This document shows positions 18,714 through 24,026 of a stretch of 64,000 nt of DNA, one piece after another (the first letter of the stretch is position 1; the number at the start of each line of letters is the position of its first letter). The position numbers and the translations under genes were made by a program. The notes beneath the pieces were generated by a model that saw nothing but the letters and a program-made list of their open reading frames with translations, was not told where the DNA came from and did no database searches. This DNA comes from Microbispora hainanensis (GTDB lineage: Bacteria > Actinomycetota > Actinomycetes > Streptosporangiales > Streptosporangiaceae), in NCBI RefSeq assembly GCF_036186745.1, contig NZ_CP108086.1:3720001-3784000 (forward strand), in the 5' to 3' direction.

Positions 18714-19239
18714 AACCTTGGGTAAGAGCGCGGCGTGTCGCCGGGACGTGAGCGCCTGCCGACTCCGGGGCGACTTGCCTGCTCAACACAGGTGTGGATG
18801 CTCCGGTTGCGGGGATTCCCAGAATATGACCACGAATTTTCCGGCGGTGAGATGGCAACCGGGATCACGCAAAGTGATCGTTTAGCGGATCTCCTGGCTG
18901 ACATCCGAGGCGGTAGCGACTAGCGTTCAGACATGGCACCCGTTCGGGTCCGTGGTTGCGCCGGGCCGACTCCCTCGCGGGGTTCGGCCTGGTTAGCCGA
19001 TGCCAGCCGCAGGCGAAACGGCCCACGTAAGGCGACTCTTGGTCGACCGATCACGGTGCGGCTTAGAGGTAAGTCCTGCCCTCCCGGGGGTCCAGATGTC
19101 CCCCGTAAGAGGAGAAGGGCAGTAGTGGCGAGTGAGCTGCGAACCCCTCAGCAGGCGGATGTGGGGACGAAGACCAGGTCGGCCGGACGGGTGTCCAAGA
19201 GCGCGTGCACCACCGTCGATGTGCGAAGGGGGGCTTTGC
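18714..19239 (+). promoter_or_regulatory. 526-bp untranslated/regulatory region before hpf, with structured leader
   Basis: No convincing gene is present. The first 200 bases are unusually AT-rich for this genome (around 18820-18900), which fits a promoter region. The second part can fold: GGCCGA/TCGGCC arms near 18964-18990, and a stem of 6 pairs (19085-19090 with 19100-19105) enclosed by GCCCT/AGGGC (19078-19082 with 19116-19120). A short plus-strand frame at 18795-18923 contains a TTA codon and lacks the usual third-position G/C, so I do not call it. Hibernation-factor genes are typically stress and growth-phase regulated, which would fit a long leader. Confidence 0.45.
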
Positions 19240-19905
19240 GTGGAAATCATCGTCAAGGGACGGCACACCACTGTGGGTGACCGGTTCCGCGATCAAGTGA
19301 CGTCCAAGCTGGCCAGGATCCAGAAGCTCAACAACAAGCTCATCCAGGTCGACGTAGAGGTCTCGAAGGAACCCAACCACCGGCAGAGCGGGCAGCGTGA
19401 ACGGGTGGAGCTGACCATCCACTCGCGGGGCCCAGCGATCCGCGCGGAGGCCTGCGCGGACGACCGGTTCTCGGCGCTGGACATCGCCATCGGCAAACTG
19501 GAGGAACGGCTGAGGCGGCTAGCCGATCGCCGCAAGATCCATCACGGGAAGAACTGCCCTCCCTCGATGGCAGAGTTCACCGCGGTGACCGAGAACGCGC
19601 AGGAGGTGGTCACGAGCGTCCGGGAGGAGCCGGAGCCGGTCGCCGAGATCCCGGCCGAGACCGCCGGTGGGCGGGCCCGGAGTTCCGAGCCCATCGTGCC
19701 CATCGAGATGGACGGCGAAGGACCGCTGATCGTACGCGAGAAGTTCCACAAGGCCGACCCCATGACGATCGATCAGGCGCTCCTGGAAATGGAGCTCGTC
19801 GGACACGACTTCTACCTCTTCCGCGACAAGGAAGGGGGTCAGCCGAGCGTCGTCTACCGACGCCGCGGCTACGACTACGGAGTCCTCAGGCTCGTGGAGA
19901 GCTAG
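19240..19905 (+). CDS. hpf: Ribosome hibernation promoting factor, long form
   Basis: 221 residues from a GTG at 19240 preceded by AAGGGGGG. The N-terminal S30AE/RaiA domain (about 1-105) starts 'EIIVKGRHTTVGDRFRDQV'. After a variable linker comes the C-terminal dimerisation domain 'IVREKFHKADPMTIDQALLEMELVGHDFYLF...VVYRRRGYDYGVLRL', which marks the long HPF type that forms 100S ribosome dimers. It is a single-gene unit with a long leader and a strong terminator. Confidence 0.95.
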   Translation: MEIIVKGRHTTVGDRFRDQVTSKLARIQKLNNKLIQVDVEVSKEPNHRQSGQRERVELTIHSRGPAIRAEACADDRFSALDIAIGKLEERLRRLADRRKIHHGKNCPPSMAEFTAVTENAQEVVTSVREEPEPVAEIPAETAGGRARSSEPIVPIEMDGEGPLIVREKFHKADPMTIDQALLEMELVGHDFYLFRDKEGGQPSVVYRRRGYDYGVLRLVES

Positions 19906-20005: not shown

Positions 20006-20488
20006 TCAGGTCGCTCGTTCCGGATTCTTCACGCATTCCGTGTCACCGAAGATGTTGATTCCGACGGGTGACTCTCCCACTCCGGCGCTGATGCCGCCCA
20101 CACCTGCGCGTTCGGCGCCGGCCACGCGAGTACGGCTGTAGTTGATGGTCCAGCCGCGTTGCCGCAGCACTGTGAGGACTTGTTGGAACACGTCGTCCGG
20201 GTTGAGATCCTTGTCGGTTGCGTCGCTGTGGACATTGATGGCGCTTTTGACGCTGGTGTGTTCGGTGCCGACCGGCCCACCGCAAGGTGAGTCCTTCACC
20301 TGTACGGCGACGAGGGGCTCGGCGTCGGGGAAGACCGCCCGGATGATGGCATTGGCCTCGGTGATGAGCACCTGACGAGATTGTTCGGGGGTCATCTCCA
20401 CTTCCGGTACGCGCATGCAGCCGGCCAGGGGAATGGGCAGGCATAGCATCGCGATGATGGCGCGGCGGTTCCGGGACAGGGAGATCAT
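20006..20488 (-). CDS. Small lipoprotein, paralogue A of a tandem pair
   Basis: 160 residues, unrecognised family. The N-terminal lipoprotein signal has lipobox LAGC (IAMLCLPIPLAGC). The mature part contains 'MTPEQSRQVLITEANAIIRAVFPDAEPLVAVQVKDSPCGG' and ends in a GDTECVKNP motif, so two Cys residues could form a disulfide. It is roughly three-quarters identical by eye to the product of 20585-21058, with divergence concentrated in the signal peptide and one central segment. No good ribosome site is visible at the ATG. Downstream of the alpha/beta hydrolase gene and on the same strand, it is probably the last gene of a three-gene unit. Confidence 0.75.
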   Translation of the reverse strand: MISLSRNRRAIIAMLCLPIPLAGCMRVPEVEMTPEQSRQVLITEANAIIRAVFPDAEPLVAVQVKDSPCGGPVGTEHTSVKSAINVHSDATDKDLNPDDVFQQVLTVLRQRGWTINYSRTRVAGAERAGVGGISAGVGESPVGINIFGDTECVKNPERAT

Positions 20489-20584
20489 TTGGTCTGTTGG
20501 TCACTCATCACGATGGGTAGCGGAATTGGGTAGCAGTTCGGCACACGCTCGCCAGCATGAGGGGGTGTCGGAGCGTTTGGAAAC

Positions 20585-21058
20585 CTATCTATCAGGGTTC
20601 TTCACGCATTCCGTGTCGCCGCCGATGTTGATTCCGACAGGGGATTTTGGCACCCCCACACTGATGCCGCCCACGCCTTTGCGTTCGGCACCGGCCACGC
20701 GACCTTTCGTGTAGTTGATGGTCCAGCCGCGTTGCCGCAGCACTGTGAGGACTTCCCGGAACACCTCGTCCGGATCGGACGTGTCGTTCGCGGTGTCGCT
20801 GCGAACCGTGAGGACACTTGTCACGCTCGTGTCGTCGGTACCGACAGGCCCGCCACACGGCGCATCCTTCACCTGTACGGCGACGAGAGGCTCGGCGTCA
20901 GGGAACACTGCCCGGATGATGGCCTTGGCCTCCGTGATGAGAACCTGACGAGATTCCTCAGGGGTCATATTTATCTCCGGTCCACGTGTGCAGGCGCTCA
21001 CAAGCGCGAGCGGGGCTAGGACTGTGGCGAGGAGGCGAAGTTTGAGCGGAAAGGTCAT
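20585..21058 (-). CDS. Small lipoprotein, paralogue B of a tandem pair
   Basis: 157 residues. Signal peptide with lipobox VSAC (LAPLALVSAC), then 'EINMTPEESRQVLITEAKAIIRAVFPDAEPLVAVQVKDAPCGG'. The same two Cys-containing motifs as paralogue A are present. The ATG at 21058 overlaps the hydrolase stop (ATGA), so the two products are made in a coupled way. Paralogue A, 97 bp downstream, looks like a local gene duplication. Function is unknown; a surface-anchored partner or protector of the hydrolase is a hypothesis. Confidence 0.8.
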   Translation of the reverse strand: MTFPLKLRLLATVLAPLALVSACTRGPEINMTPEESRQVLITEAKAIIRAVFPDAEPLVAVQVKDAPCGGPVGTDDTSVTSVLTVRSDTANDTSDPDEVFREVLTVLRQRGWTINYTKGRVAGAERKGVGGISVGVPKSPVGINIGGDTECVKNPDR

Positions 21059-22650
21059 CTCTGGTCGGGTCCGGCTTCCGTGAGGGATTTGCCGACGATC
21101 TGCGCGATGTCCTGCGGGGCGAAGTAGCCGCCGAGGCCGGAGTCGGCGAGCGTTGTCGTCGTCAGGGCAATGAGCGTGGGTACGTCCGTGCTGCCGTTTA
21201 TCGCCCCTCGGATAATCGGCTCGAACGCCGTGGCGAGTGCTCCCGCCTTCCATTGCGGGACCCTGCTCTGTAGTTCCTTGACCAGGACCCGCACGTTGGC
21301 GGCGCCGAACTGTTCGTCATCCAGTTTCGGCGACCCCATAAAGGTCTGAACACACCCGTCGCCGGTGAGGATGGTCTGCAGGTTGTTCAACCCTGTGTTC
21401 TTCTGCATGTAGTACTCGGAGTGACCGGACGACCGGCCGGTGGCCAGCCGTCGGATGTCGGCCATCTCCGCAGGATCCTTGCCGTGTGCTTCCGTGTAGG
21501 ACACCCAGTCGCCTGGGGCGCGCATGGCGAACACCTGGGTGCCGGGTTTCAGCTTGAGATCGGCCGCGCTCTTGATGGTGGGGCCGAGTCCCGGGCTCCC
21601 CATGAACACGACCGAGTCGAACGGCGTCCCCTCCTGCAGGGCCTTGCTGGACAGCAATGTGCCGTAGCTGTGGGCGAACAGGGCGAACTTCGCACCCTTG
21701 GCCGCCTCCAGCCCGGCACGGAACGAATGCAGTGCGGGGGCACCGGCCTCGGCCTTGGCAGGCAGCACGGAGTCGCCGAACTCAGGCGTGTCATAACCGA
21801 GCCACGTGATGACCGCGCTCTCCGGCAGATCCCTCTTGGTCTCGGGATCTCTCAAGAGCAGCGTGGCGTCTCGCGCTATGTCGTGGTAGTTGTCGAGCCG
21901 GTTGGTGATGCCGGGGACCATGACGGCGACGTGTTCGGCCTTGGCGAGGTCGCCGAAGACCTCCGCGACGCGGCCGTCGCCAGCCGGATCGAACAGCAGG
22001 AACTGGCGCGGGACGGACCGGCCGTCGCCGGTCACCCGCGGCTGGAGGAATTCCGTCATGCGGGCCACCCGCTTCTCCAGAAGCGTCACCTGGGGACTTT
22101 TGGGGTCGGTGGCCTTCAAGGCGGCCAGGTCCTTCTGTTCATGGGTGAGGGCGCGCTCGATCAGGAGCCGGTTGGCGGCGTAGCGCACTGTGGCCGGCGC
22201 GCCGTCCAGTCGCCCGACCACGTCGGGCTGTTCGATCGCGAGCCAGGATCGTTCGGCGGCGGTCAGTTTGCCGAAGAATTTTCGGATCGCCTGAACTCGC
22301 TGCTCCGGAGTGGATGCGGCGTTGTCGCTGATGACCTTTTTCAGGTCTTTCCGCAGCCGGATTTTGTCATCACCGGAAATGGTCCCGACTGCGGTGGTCA
22401 GGCCGAATGTGGACAATGCGCCGAATGGGTCCCCGCCCTTTTCCGCTGCGCGGACGATAGCGGCCCGGTTGCCCAGTTCTGTGGCGGTGTCCCCGGCCCA
22501 CCGCAGCATGGCCGCCAGTGGAGTGGCCTGGGCCTGTCCCACGAGTTGGCAGGCCCGCTTGTAGTACTGCTCCGCCAGTTGTCGTTTGTCGGTGAGAAGC
22601 TTGGCCAGTTGTTCCAGATCGTCCGCGTCGACCACCCGTTCCGGCTCCAC
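21055..22650 (-). CDS. Alpha/beta hydrolase, DUF1023-like, with N-terminal helical region
   Basis: 531 residues from a GTG at 22650 (MEPERVVDADDLEQL...). The first ~210 residues are helical ('LAKLLTDKRQLAEQYYKRAC', 'ATELGNRAAIVRAAEKGGD'), resembling the WXG-type helical halves fused to actinobacterial hydrolases. The hydrolase domain has 'AEHVAVMVPGITNRLDNYHDIARDA' and the nucleophile elbow AHSYG with Ser about 328, as in DUF1023 proteins. No signal peptide is seen, so export would need a non-Sec route such as type VII. The divergent neighbour is a small WxG protein and the downstream neighbours are two lipoproteins. The frame continues upstream through non-coding-like sequence, which I exclude. 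Confidence 0.8.
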   Translation of the reverse strand: MEPERVVDADDLEQLAKLLTDKRQLAEQYYKRACQLVGQAQATPLAAMLRWAGDTATELGNRAAIVRAAEKGGDPFGALSTFGLTTAVGTISGDDKIRLRKDLKKVISDNAASTPEQRVQAIRKFFGKLTAAERSWLAIEQPDVVGRLDGAPATVRYAANRLLIERALTHEQKDLAALKATDPKSPQVTLLEKRVARMTEFLQPRVTGDGRSVPRQFLLFDPAGDGRVAEVFGDLAKAEHVAVMVPGITNRLDNYHDIARDATLLLRDPETKRDLPESAVITWLGYDTPEFGDSVLPAKAEAGAPALHSFRAGLEAAKGAKFALFAHSYGTLLSSKALQEGTPFDSVVFMGSPGLGPTIKSAADLKLKPGTQVFAMRAPGDWVSYTEAHGKDPAEMADIRRLATGRSSGHSEYYMQKNTGLNNLQTILTGDGCVQTFMGSPKLDDEQFGAANVRVLVKELQSRVPQWKAGALATAFEPIIRGAINGSTDVPTLIALTTTTLADSGLGGYFAPQDIAQIVGKSLTEAGPDQR

Positions 22651-22729
22651 AGGACTAAAACCTAGCCCGTCGTTGCACAATGTGGAAGGATTCTTACGCC
22701 ACCCGCCTGGATCGGATGGAATAACGGGG

Positions 22730-23089
22730 ATGTCTCTGCATGATGATTTGAGCCGGTTGGCACATGAACATGAGGATCTGGCCGAGGCGATTGATGAAGT
22801 GCTGCAGCCGGTCGGCGTCCTGATGGACCGGATGAGTTGGAAGGGCCCGCATCGGGATCGGGTGCAGGCCGAGCTGGGAGCGATGCGGCGCGGCACCGGG
22901 ACGGTCAGTGGAAGCCTGCGAGAACGGGCCGTGCTGCTCAGGGGCGCGGCGGCGGCCGTCCCCCCAACGCCCACACCGGGGATCTCGCAGCCGCCGTCTC
23001 CGGCGGATCTGGTGAGAGGAGTTCTCCGCCAGATGAGCCCAGTGGGGCCCGTCGTATCTGACGTGCTCTCCCGGTACGGCCTCCTCTGA
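22730..23089 (+). CDS. Small WXG100-like helical protein
   Basis: 119 residues from the ATG at 22730. Two helices flank a W-K-G turn at residues 37-39 ('LMDRMSWKGPHRDRVQAELG'), the hallmark of WXG100/ESX substrates. A Pro-rich linker and a helical tail 'DLVRGVLRQMSPVGPVVSDVLSRYGLL' follow. It diverges from the DUF1023-like hydrolase with 79 bp between starts. ESX-type proteins are usually exported by type VII secretion as partners of larger helical proteins, here plausibly the hydrolase. Confidence 0.65.
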   Translation: MSLHDDLSRLAHEHEDLAEAIDEVLQPVGVLMDRMSWKGPHRDRVQAELGAMRRGTGTVSGSLRERAVLLRGAAAAVPPTPTPGISQPPSPADLVRGVLRQMSPVGPVVSDVLSRYGLL

Positions 23090-23321
23090 GAAACCGGGCC
23101 TTACGATGCCGGCCGAAAAGCCGCGACATCGAAGCAGAGTGCGTGATTCGGGGGTGTGGGCACTTATCGTGAAGAGGATGAGCACGTTCCGCGCAGCAGG
23201 TGTCGTTCACCCAGGTATGTCCTGGTGCCGGGGGTAGTAACGCCTCGACGAAGATCCACACCGGTTCCCGAACCGTGCCATGATGGCGATCCAGCGTCCT
23301 TGGCCCCCGCAAGGAGGTTCC

Positions 23322-24026
23322 GTGACCCGACCCGACGAGGCGGCCCGAGCAGCCGGTCGCAGCGAGCCGATCCGTGTGCTGATCGTCGACGATCACGCGC
23401 TGATCCGCCGCAGCCTGGAGCTCGCGCTGGCCGCGGAGGCGGATATCGAGGTGGTCGGCGAGGCGAGCGACGGCCAGGAGGCCGTGGAGCTCGCGGACCG
23501 GTTGATGCCGGACGTGGTCCTGATGGACGTCCGCATGCCGAGGCTGGACGGCATCGGGGCGACCCGGAAGATCAAGGAGTCGGTGCCGAGCACCCGGATC
23601 ATCATGCTCACCGTCAGCGACGAGGAGGAGGACCTCTTCGAGGCGATCAAGGCGGGTGCGACGGGCTATCTGCTCAAGGACGTCCAGATCGACGAGGTGC
23701 CCGACGCCGTGCGCGGCGTCCACGAGGGGCAGTCGCTCATCAACCCCGCGATGGCGGCCAAGCTGATCAGCGAGTTCGCGAACATGAGCCGCAAGGAGGC
23801 CGAGCGGCCTCCCCAGCTCCCGGTTCCCCGCCTGACCGACCGGGAGATGGAGGTGCTGCGCCTCGTCGCGAAGGGTATGAACAACCGCGAGATCGCGAAG
23901 GACCTGTTCATCTCCGAGAACACGGTGAAGAACCACGTCCGCAACATCCTGGAGAAGCTCCAGCTCCACTCGCGCATGGAGGCCGTGGTCTACGCAGTGC
24001 GCGAGCGGCTGCTGGAGATCACCTGA
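23322..24026 (+). CDS. NarL/LuxR-type response regulator
   Basis: 234 residues. The GTG at 23322 is set by AAGGAGG seven bases upstream; a longer frame from 23280 has no such site. The receiver domain has Asp69 in VVLMDVRMP, and 'GYLLKDV' carries the conserved Lys. The C-terminal LuxR helix-turn-helix is 'LTDREMEVLRLVAKGMNNREIAKDLFISENTVKNHV'. No histidine kinase is adjacent, so it is an orphan. The same gene sits between hpf and secA in Streptomyces. Its last 8 bases overlap the convergent YcaQ-like gene. Confidence 0.93.
   Translation: MTRPDEAARAAGRSEPIRVLIVDDHALIRRSLELALAAEADIEVVGEASDGQEAVELADRLMPDVVLMDVRMPRLDGIGATRKIKESVPSTRIIMLTVSDEEEDLFEAIKAGATGYLLKDVQIDEVPDAVRGVHEGQSLINPAMAAKLISEFANMSRKEAERPPQLPVPRLTDREMEVLRLVAKGMNNREIAKDLFISENTVKNHVRNILEKLQLHSRMEAVVYAVRERLLEIT

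What the first reader, a model, noticed from the sequence alone, without database searches (positions are those of the whole stretch)
20006..23089. Accessory WxG / DUF1023-like hydrolase / twin-lipoprotein island inside a conserved gene order
In Streptomyces the order hpf - NarL-type regulator - YcaQ-like - secA is close to contiguous. Here 3 kb are inserted after hpf: a small WxG protein divergent from an alpha/beta hydrolase with an ESX-like helical N-terminus and no Sec signal, whose stop overlaps the first of two duplicated lipoproteins of unrecognised family. The layout suggests a type VII-exported hydrolase with surface-anchored partners, possibly an effector with lipoprotein immunity, amplified by duplication. 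I know of no described system with this composition.
Basis: partly seen in the sequence, partly recalled or inferred. Interest (0 to 1): 0.6.

Follow-up and report, generated by a model that had tools for sequence, protein, structure and literature searches.

The report
Secreted-hydrolase toxin with lipoprotein immunity genes
A 3-kb optional gene cassette in a soil actinomycete looks like a contact weapon: an exported lipase-like enzyme, its export helper, and two membrane-anchored proteins that probably protect the producer, and similar enzyme-lipoprotein pairs occur in many actinobacteria, including relatives of a mycobacterial lipoprotein (LppA) whose function was unknown.

Summary
In this Microbispora genome a 3-kb cassette (WXG-like gene diverging from an Abhydrolase_8/DUF1023 hydrolase, then two tandem lipoproteins, LPs) lies between hpf and a NarL-type regulator. 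It is present in 6 of 15 Microbispora genomes; the site is empty in the other 9. The LP family lies beside the hydrolase or its remains in 12 of 13 matching genomes. The pairing is wide: of 58 long GHSYG-type Abhydrolase_8 frames examined, 41 have a lipoprotein gene directly downstream (usually overlapping), against 0 of 32 CHSYG-type hydrolases; a like-for-like control gave 8 of 516 other genes. Most of these LPs share a Cys-pair pattern, some are Pfam LppA, and LppA tops (tied) the structural matches of the Microbispora LP. LP variation tracks the hydrolase's catalytic and C-terminal regions, not its N-terminal domain. One genome has a swapped catalytic domain plus adjacent LP and a second LP of another type; two keep an intact LP beside a decayed hydrolase. 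Best reading: a type VII-exported lipid- or ester-hydrolysing toxin with lipoprotein immunity. The claim that no such composition is described fails: M. abscessus prophage cassettes and S. aureus TslA/TilA are precedents. Toxicity, neutralisation and export are inferred.

The parts
22730..23089 (+). Small WXG-like protein (119 aa), divergent from the hydrolase; proposed export partner
   Evidence: W37, G39 invariant in 11 of 11 aligned; matches at E about 1e-14 or better in 10 of 297 genomes, each beside the hydrolase or its remains; no Pfam hit for the window protein
21055..22650 (-). Abhydrolase_8/DUF1023 alpha/beta hydrolase (531 aa from GTG): N-terminal helical domain 1-~110, catalytic domain ~216-430, variable C-terminal region
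22438..22626 (-). Hydrolase residues 9-71: predicted helical hairpin (ESX/WXG-like) with conserved W51-A52; the N-domain also occurs on another protein elsewhere in the genome
   Evidence: model helices H9-37, H40-71; N-domain-only matches; paralogue in L062
21667..21669 (-). Predicted nucleophile Ser328 (AHSYGT); with Asp381 (21508-21510) and His410 (21421-21423) forms the predicted triad
   Evidence: S328, D381, H410 invariant in 11 of 11 aligned hydrolases
21811..21900 (-). Polymorphic segment, hydrolase residues 251-280; its variants group as the adjacent lipoproteins do
20585..21058 (-). Lipoprotein LP1 (157 aa, lipobox VSAC), start overlaps hydrolase stop (ATGA); proposed cognate immunity protein
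20006..20488 (-). Lipoprotein LP2 (160 aa, lipobox LAGC), tandem paralogue; mature part matches the LPs of M. rosea and M. siamensis (87-88%); proposed extra immunity gene
19132..19905 (+). hpf (ribosome hibernation factor), left edge of the insertion site; ORF as listed, true start may lie inside
23280..24026 (+). NarL-type response regulator, right edge of the insertion site

Best explanation
An accessory type VII secretion (T7SS) effector-immunity cassette. The hydrolase's N-terminal helical domain pairs with the divergently encoded WXG-like protein as a composite export signal. The enzyme leaves through the host's ESX-type machinery and attacks an ester or lipid of neighbouring cells at the outer face of the membrane or in the wall zone. 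LP1, probably translated by coupling from the hydrolase stop and anchored on the outer membrane leaflet, binds the catalytic face and neutralises it. LP2 is an extra immunity allele directed at the hydrolase variant of other strains. SHOWN: gene content, gene overlap, invariant catalytic residues, constant neighbourhood, empty sites, a recombinant catalytic-domain-plus-LP block, LP/catalytic-domain covariation. INFERRED: export, enzymatic target, toxicity, LP-hydrolase binding and neutralisation.
For: Neighbourhood: LP1 matched 13 of 297 family genomes, in 12 of them beside the hydrolase or its remains. Wide rule: 41 of 58 long GHSYG frames have a strict LP call directly downstream, 0 of 32 CHSYG; like-for-like test 36 of 51 against 8 of 516 control genes. 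Orphan LPs: Streptosporangium carneum and Nonomuraea montanisoli keep an open LP frame with lipobox beside a fragmented or mostly missing hydrolase. Recombinant: in M. hainanensis (G012) hydrolase residues 1-250 match M. rosea (93-98% DNA per 50-codon window; residues 1-215 95% aa), the rest matches G014 (281-430: 97%, 431-525: 92% aa), the adjacent LP is closest to G014, and a second LP is of the window-LP1/G003 type. Covariation: over 9 loci, LP divergence correlates with hydrolase residues 251-280 (partial r 0.59, p 0.010) and 431-531 (r 0.72, p 0.0014) after removing N-terminal divergence, and with no 30-residue window up to residue 255. N-domain plus WXG occur as a unit on other proteins: 7 of 9 N-domain-only matches have a divergent WXG-like match alongside, weak by score (E 3e-6 to 4e-4). 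T7SS: canonical EccB and EccCb in this genome; EccB in 6 of 6 cassette-bearing Microbispora, and in 1 of 5 lacking it, or 2 of 6 with G008. Tested analogue: TslA/TilA.
Against: No activity, export or binding test exists. Two Sphaerimonospora genomes with an open cassette, and the G040 MAG, lack EccB and an EccCb over its cut-off; they have only a divergent EccC-like ATPase that cassette-less genomes also have. Over the class, EccB does not separate hydrolase+LP genomes (23 of 27) from genomes where only the CHSYG type was fetched (20 of 25); long hydrolase without LP 7 of 12. The window's WXG-like protein and hydrolase N-domain do not hit WXG100 in Pfam. 17 of 58 long hydrolases have no strict LP call; four of these have one by the relaxed test or by eye (L098, L103, L162, L167), leaving 13 without. 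In 12 of 27 genus codes no strict LP call was made. Pairwise dN/dS is below 1 for LP, hydrolase and WXG in the 5 pairs computed. The covariation rests on 9 related loci and overlapping windows, without correction for multiple testing. The structural match to LppA is barely above unrelated rows.
Confidence: 0.6

Rival explanations
1. Envelope enzyme with a lipoprotein cofactor: the hydrolase remodels the producer's own envelope lipids and the lipoprotein is its surface receptor, activator or foldase rather than an immunity protein.
For: Close coupling and covariation fit any tight partner. CHSYG-type Abhydrolase_8 relatives without LPs are common (32 of 95 frames examined) and may be housekeeping enzymes (inference).
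Against: Tandem non-identical LP copies, an extra LP matching other strains' type, open LP frames next to decayed hydrolases, and patchy presence with clean empty sites are not expected of a cofactor.
Confidence: 0.2
2. Effector directed at eukaryotes (amoebae, fungi, plants) rather than bacteria, the lipoprotein preventing self-damage.
For: Microbispora live in soil and on plants (general knowledge); the prophage cassettes were linked by their authors to growth in infected host cells (PMC8092301, passages).
Against: Strain-to-strain matching of LP type and hydrolase type, and extra LPs of other strains' types, point to kin or bacterial competition.
Confidence: 0.12
3. Vestigial or mobile-element cargo with no current function.
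For: Hydrolase decayed in two genomes; the cassette is missing from 9 of 15 Microbispora.
Against: Open frames and invariant triad in the 11 aligned loci, dN/dS below 1.
Confidence: 0.05

Closest known systems
M. abscessus prophage PT-Imm cassettes (Dedrick et al. 2021, PMC8092301; passages read; records MW584173, MW584157)
   Same: Small WXG gene, WXG-motif toxin, then putative immunity gene. The toxins of both records match the window hydrolase (31% and 29% identity over about 40%); the one scanned carries Abhydrolase_8 (E 2.9e-25). In both the next, overlapping gene is noted 'LppA lipoprotein' by the depositors.
   Different: Genes on one strand, prophage-borne; here the WXG gene is divergent and the locus chromosomal at a fixed site, with LP duplication. 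Pfam did not confirm LppA for the one prophage lipoprotein scanned.
S. aureus TslA/TilA/TlaA1/TlaA2 (PMC10730906; passages read)
   Same: T7-secreted lipase-type hydrolase, small helical partners, lipoprotein immunity, variable copy number of the lipoprotein, immunity gene next to the toxin domain.
   Different: Bacillota; TslA has its catalytic domain first and its helical targeting domain last; TilA is DUF576. Here the helical domain is N-terminal and the LP fold is LppA-like.
LppA lipoproteins (PF16708; PDB 2v7s) and DUF4853 (PDB 4mjg)
   Same: Top, tied structural matches of the Microbispora LP (Z 8.9 and 8.6); LppA-family LPs sit directly behind Abhydrolase_8 genes in loci L127, L128 and L150.
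   Different: 15% and 11% identity over the aligned parts; the window LPs do not hit the Pfam LppA model.
Tox-ABhydrolase-3 (Zhang et al. 2012, PMC3482391; passages and the lipid-toxin section read)
   Same: Predicted alpha/beta-hydrolase toxin domain with GHSxG, T7SS (WXG) among its delivery modes, Actinobacteria among its hosts.
   Different: Listed with Imm66/Imm69. The paper is not among those listed for the names DUF1023, PF06259 or Abhydrolase_8. Whether the two domain families are the same was not tested.

Membership tests
Abhydrolase_8 (PF06259, DUF1023) | Profile match over the curated cut-off | tested here: met
   123.3 bits against 20.5
Abhydrolase_8 (PF06259, DUF1023) | Intact Ser/Asp/His residues of an alpha/beta hydrolase | tested here: met
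   S328, D381, H410 invariant in 11 of 11; hydrolase fold in the model, best Z 14.0 to 2o2g. Assignment of Asp and His to the triad is inferred
T7SS (ESX) polymorphic toxin-immunity system | N-terminal helical targeting domain on the toxin and a small WXG-type partner | tested here: inconclusive
   Predicted hairpin H9-37/H40-71 and WXG-like partner with invariant W.G are there, but Pfam WXG100 is not hit by either and targeting was not tested
T7SS (ESX) polymorphic toxin-immunity system | T7SS machinery in the genome | tested here: inconclusive
   Met in this genome (EccB, EccCb) and, for EccB, in 6 of 6 cassette-bearing Microbispora; EccB absent in two Sphaerimonospora and the G040 MAG
T7SS (ESX) polymorphic toxin-immunity system | Adjacent immunity gene co-varying with the toxin domain | tested here: met
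   (9 related loci)
T7SS (ESX) polymorphic toxin-immunity system | One trafficking domain shared by different C-terminal domains | tested here: met
   N-domain also on a 456-aa protein without the hydrolase domain, with its own divergent WXG-like gene (L062)
T7SS (ESX) polymorphic toxin-immunity system | Export, toxicity and neutralisation shown | not testable with these tools
   Bench work
LppA lipoprotein family (PF16708) | Pfam LppA match of the window LPs | tested here: not met
   No LppA match at E up to 1
LppA lipoprotein family (PF16708) | LppA fold | tested here: inconclusive
   First of 1000 chains is LppA, Z 8.9, rmsd 5.7, 128 aligned, tied with 4mjg and 6td9 (8.0); profile comparison with the 14-LP cluster that holds LppA-family members: probability 67%, E 5e-5, shuffled control 0.4%; with a second four-LP group that includes LppA-family members: 0.75%
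TslA/TilA family | Lipase domain first, helical domain last | tested here: not met
   Order reversed
TslA/TilA family | DUF576 lipoprotein | tested here: not met
   No Pfam family over its cut-off for LP1 or LP2, none of that name listed

The most novel reading that the evidence does not exclude
Long GHSYG-type Abhydrolase_8 proteins are a widespread class of actinobacterial type VII lipase-type toxins, and a fast-diverging superfamily of lipoproteins with a conserved Cys pair (window LPs, LppA, DUF4853-like) is their immunity family. On this view the mycobacterial LppA/LppB lipoproteins, now read as possible antigens because they recombine and are under positive selection, would be inter-bacterial immunity genes.
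Probability: 0.48. Interest if true: 0.78.

Novelty: new variant of a known kind. Interest (0 to 1): 0.62.

Why it matters
It gives a concrete, testable function to a poorly studied domain (DUF1023/Abhydrolase_8) and to a set of actinobacterial lipoproteins of unknown function. It extends the TslA/TilA logic (T7-secreted lipase with lipoprotein immunity) from Bacillota to Actinomycetota, where antibacterial T7SS effectors are, to my knowledge, little known. It also offers a different explanation for the recombination and selection reported for lppA/lppB.

Tried and rejected
Anti-phage defence: no meaningful PADLOC hit for the four proteins (only Cmr5 on the hydrolase, E 0.006). Mobile carriage of the window family: 23 plasmid and 4 phage records match the hydrolase, each below 60% identity and none over 80% of its length. 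T7SS presence as a discriminating test failed because of lineage confounding. An automatic scan for upstream WXG genes (26 of 58 long, 9 of 37 other) was full of spurious frames and is not used; of single cases scanned against Pfam, L127 and L110 are WXG100 and L171 is EspC-like. dN/dS gave no sign of positive selection.

Frames: the reading frame was mis-chosen for some loci; frames were redone with an HMM. Of I use only the Ser class (36 of 51) and the control genes (8 of 516; 4 with a gap up to 60), both under one lipobox test, slightly stricter than that; its 'other' class (2 of 42) is not used. Loci (18) were picked by me from the list; the 72 used loci came from the listed (best-scoring) part: nearly all listed frames of 440 aa or more plus a hand-drawn set of shorter ones. 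Unlisted weaker matches were not examined. By origin: picked 11 of 17, class list 30 of 41. Dropped before the counts of 58 and 32: one 272-aa frame in L103 without a recognisable elbow, and four short GHSYG frames (1 of 4 with an LP call).

LP-family hits not beside a hydrolase: G103 (28% identity, E 4e-4, no clear hydrolase nearby) and G184 (49 positions, E 3e-4, neighbourhood not examined); both judged unlikely members.

That genus code g52 is Mycobacterium (L127, L128, L150 and others) and g66 Streptomyces is my inference from LppA, the number of ESX loci and genome size; no call names them.

Recalled, from no call: the position of the LppA/LppB, LppV and LprP genes relative to hydrolase-like genes in the tuberculosis bacterium. 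It was not checked and is not used as evidence; only the neighbouring locus numbers of lppA and lppB come from a paper. Literature: searches (names of the domain: 9 papers, 7 listed; listings: titles and abstract starts) showed no paper on this pairing outside PMC8092301; the bodies of most listed papers were not read.

Full report
WHAT IS THERE. The window lies in an 8.8-Mb single-contig genome. Its genus is Microbispora: genomes of the same genus code have contigs of the same lengths as named M. hainanensis, M. rosea and M. siamensis records. Between hpf and a NarL-type regulator lie a WXG-like gene (22730-23089, +) and, divergent from it, an Abhydrolase_8 hydrolase (22650-21055, -), lipoprotein LP1 (21058-20585, start overlapping the hydrolase stop) and lipoprotein LP2 (20488-20006). 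The two LPs are 66% identical.

INSERTION SITE. The regulator was found in 15 of 15 Microbispora genomes. In the 9 without the cassette, the end of hpf and the start of the regulator lie within about 100-200 bp. The cassette is at this site in 6 of 15 Microbispora and in 2 Sphaerimonospora genomes; it, or its remains, lies elsewhere in Sphaerisporangium melleum, Streptosporangium carneum, Nonomuraea montanisoli and a Streptosporangiales MAG (two copies, longer open frames).

DO THE LIPOPROTEINS TRAVEL WITH THE HYDROLASE? LP1 as query matched 13 of 297 family genomes. In 12 of the 13 it is beside the hydrolase or its remains; the exception (G103) is a 28%-identity match that is probably not a member. 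An LP profile matched 4 of 394 class genomes, one of them over only 49 positions. In S. carneum the hydrolase is in fragments and in N. montanisoli only a C-terminal part remains, yet the LP frame with its lipobox is open in both: what survives is the lipoprotein, as expected of an immunity gene.

THE PAIRING IS WIDE. Abhydrolase_8 occurs in 184 of 394 class genomes. I examined 95 hydrolase frames in 90 loci. They fall into two kinds by nucleophile elbow. CHSYG-type: 0 of 32 have a lipoprotein ORF directly downstream. GHSYG-like type with an open frame of 440 aa or more: 41 of 58 by a strict lipobox test, 43 by a relaxed one, and L103 and L162 by eye in addition; 13 have none. Over the 62 GHSYG-type frames of any length 42 have a strict LP call, with a start-to-stop gap of -4 in 21 and -1 in 6. 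A like-for-like test gave 36 of 51 against 8 of 516 other genes in the same loci. Strict LP calls on long forms occur in 15 of 27 genus codes. The LPs differ greatly: 58 sequences (42 new, 16 of the window's family) make 10 BLAST clusters. Of the 42 new ones, 39 have, besides the lipobox Cys, two Cys 74-112 residues apart; C68 and C151 are invariant in the 16.

WHAT THE LIPOPROTEIN IS. 3 of 10 LPs scanned are Pfam LppA (L127 E 1.9e-58, L128 8.4e-27, L150 4.6e-24), and the L127 LP finds the LppA crystal structure 2v7s by sequence (E 3e-8). Independently, the model of LP1 (mean pLDDT 85.6) has 2v7s first in the second-look alignment (Z 8.9, rmsd 5.7, 128 aligned), tied with DUF4853 4mjg (Z 8.6, rmsd 3.4, 119 aligned) and 6td9 (Z 8.0); Foldseek itself ranked 4mjg first at E 0.004. 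These Z values barely exceed what unrelated folds reach. Profile comparison of the window family with the 14-LP cluster that holds LppA-family members gave 67% probability and E 5e-5, 0.4% for a column-shuffled control; with a four-LP group (L128, L131, L134) it gave 0.75%. I take common descent as likely, not proven.

THE HYDROLASE. S328, D381 and H410 are invariant in 11 of 11. The model (mean pLDDT 80.5) shows an N-terminal pair of ~30-residue helices and an alpha/beta-hydrolase domain resembling esterases and lipases. The N-domain also occurs without the hydrolase at 9 places; 7 of these 9 have a divergent, weakly scoring WXG-like match alongside, one of them in this genome (L062). So N-domain plus WXG partner looks like a unit independent of the catalytic domain.

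EVOLUTIONARY SIGNATURE. In M. hainanensis (G012) the hydrolase is a mosaic: up to residue ~250 it is closest to M. rosea, from there on to G014; the adjacent LP is also closest to G014 (79% of the mature part), while a second LP is of the window-LP1/G003 type (93% and 91%). Which LP type the mosaic replaced is not known. In the window, LP1 is of the G003 type (88%) and LP2 of the M. rosea/M. siamensis type (87-88%). The single LPs of G006 and G013 start like LP1 and continue like LP2, as if two copies had recombined. Residues 251-280 of the hydrolase group the six Microbispora loci into the same three pairs as their proximal LPs; the N-terminal domain does not. Over 9 loci, LP divergence correlates, after removing N-terminal divergence, with 30-residue windows between 241 and 300, between 346 and 435, and between 436 and 525 (permutation p 0.001 to 0.036), but not with windows up to 255, between 286 and 360, or with 421-450 (no correction for multiple testing). 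Recombination between tandem immunity paralogues is documented for T7SS of Firmicutes (PMC9484751, abstract), and lppA/lppB of the tuberculosis bacterium are reported as recombination hotspots with many sites under selection (PMC4770551, passages; positive selection also in PMC11056549, passages).

SECRETION. This genome has EccB (E 5e-88) and EccCb (E 4e-233). EccB is in 6 of 6 cassette-bearing Microbispora; among those lacking the cassette it is in 1 of 5 tested, and in G008. Against the reading: two Sphaerimonospora genomes and the MAG lack EccB, and across the class EccB does not discriminate (23 of 27 against 20 of 25).

COMPARISON WITH THE KNOWN. The composition is not without precedent. 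M. abscessus prophages carry WXG / polymorphic toxin / putative immunity cassettes, several of the immunity proteins being predicted lipoproteins (PMC8092301, passages). Four prophage records match the hydrolase; in the two opened the next, overlapping gene is noted 'LppA lipoprotein' by the depositors. The one toxin scanned has Abhydrolase_8, though Pfam did not confirm LppA for its partner. TslA/TilA in S. aureus is a tested system of the same logic (PMC10730906, passages). What is new here is the chromosomal form with a divergent WXG gene, the breadth of the hydrolase-lipoprotein rule, the link to LppA from two sides, and the strain-level matching of LP and catalytic domain.

VERDICT. A real accessory cassette that behaves like an effector-immunity system in the comparative tests on neighbourhood, decay, recombination and covariation; T7SS presence was not discriminating. 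Function is inferred, not shown. New variant of a known kind.

Noticed in passing
L062 7520-9194 (this genome, contig position ~3495500-3497200): Second locus with the same N-terminal domain and a divergent WXG-like gene, but a different C-terminal region (no Pfam family over cut-off): possibly another T7SS effector.
   Followed up: partly
L054 7533-9422 (Sphaerimonospora thailandensis): The hydrolase carries an extra insertion of roughly 85 residues before the catalytic domain compared with the other ten aligned copies.
   Followed up: no
L128 and L169: Two hydrolase-lipoprotein units close together on one strand.
   Followed up: no
L149, L112: Behind long hydrolases without a lipoprotein call there is a small overlapping ORF without a signal peptide that resembles the soluble part of such lipoproteins by eye.
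   Followed up: no
G000 contig positions 3567260 and 3602334: A divergent, long EccC-like ATPase frame is present in the 12 genomes tested, also in those without EccB; in this genome it lies about 1.4 kb from eccB.
   Followed up: no
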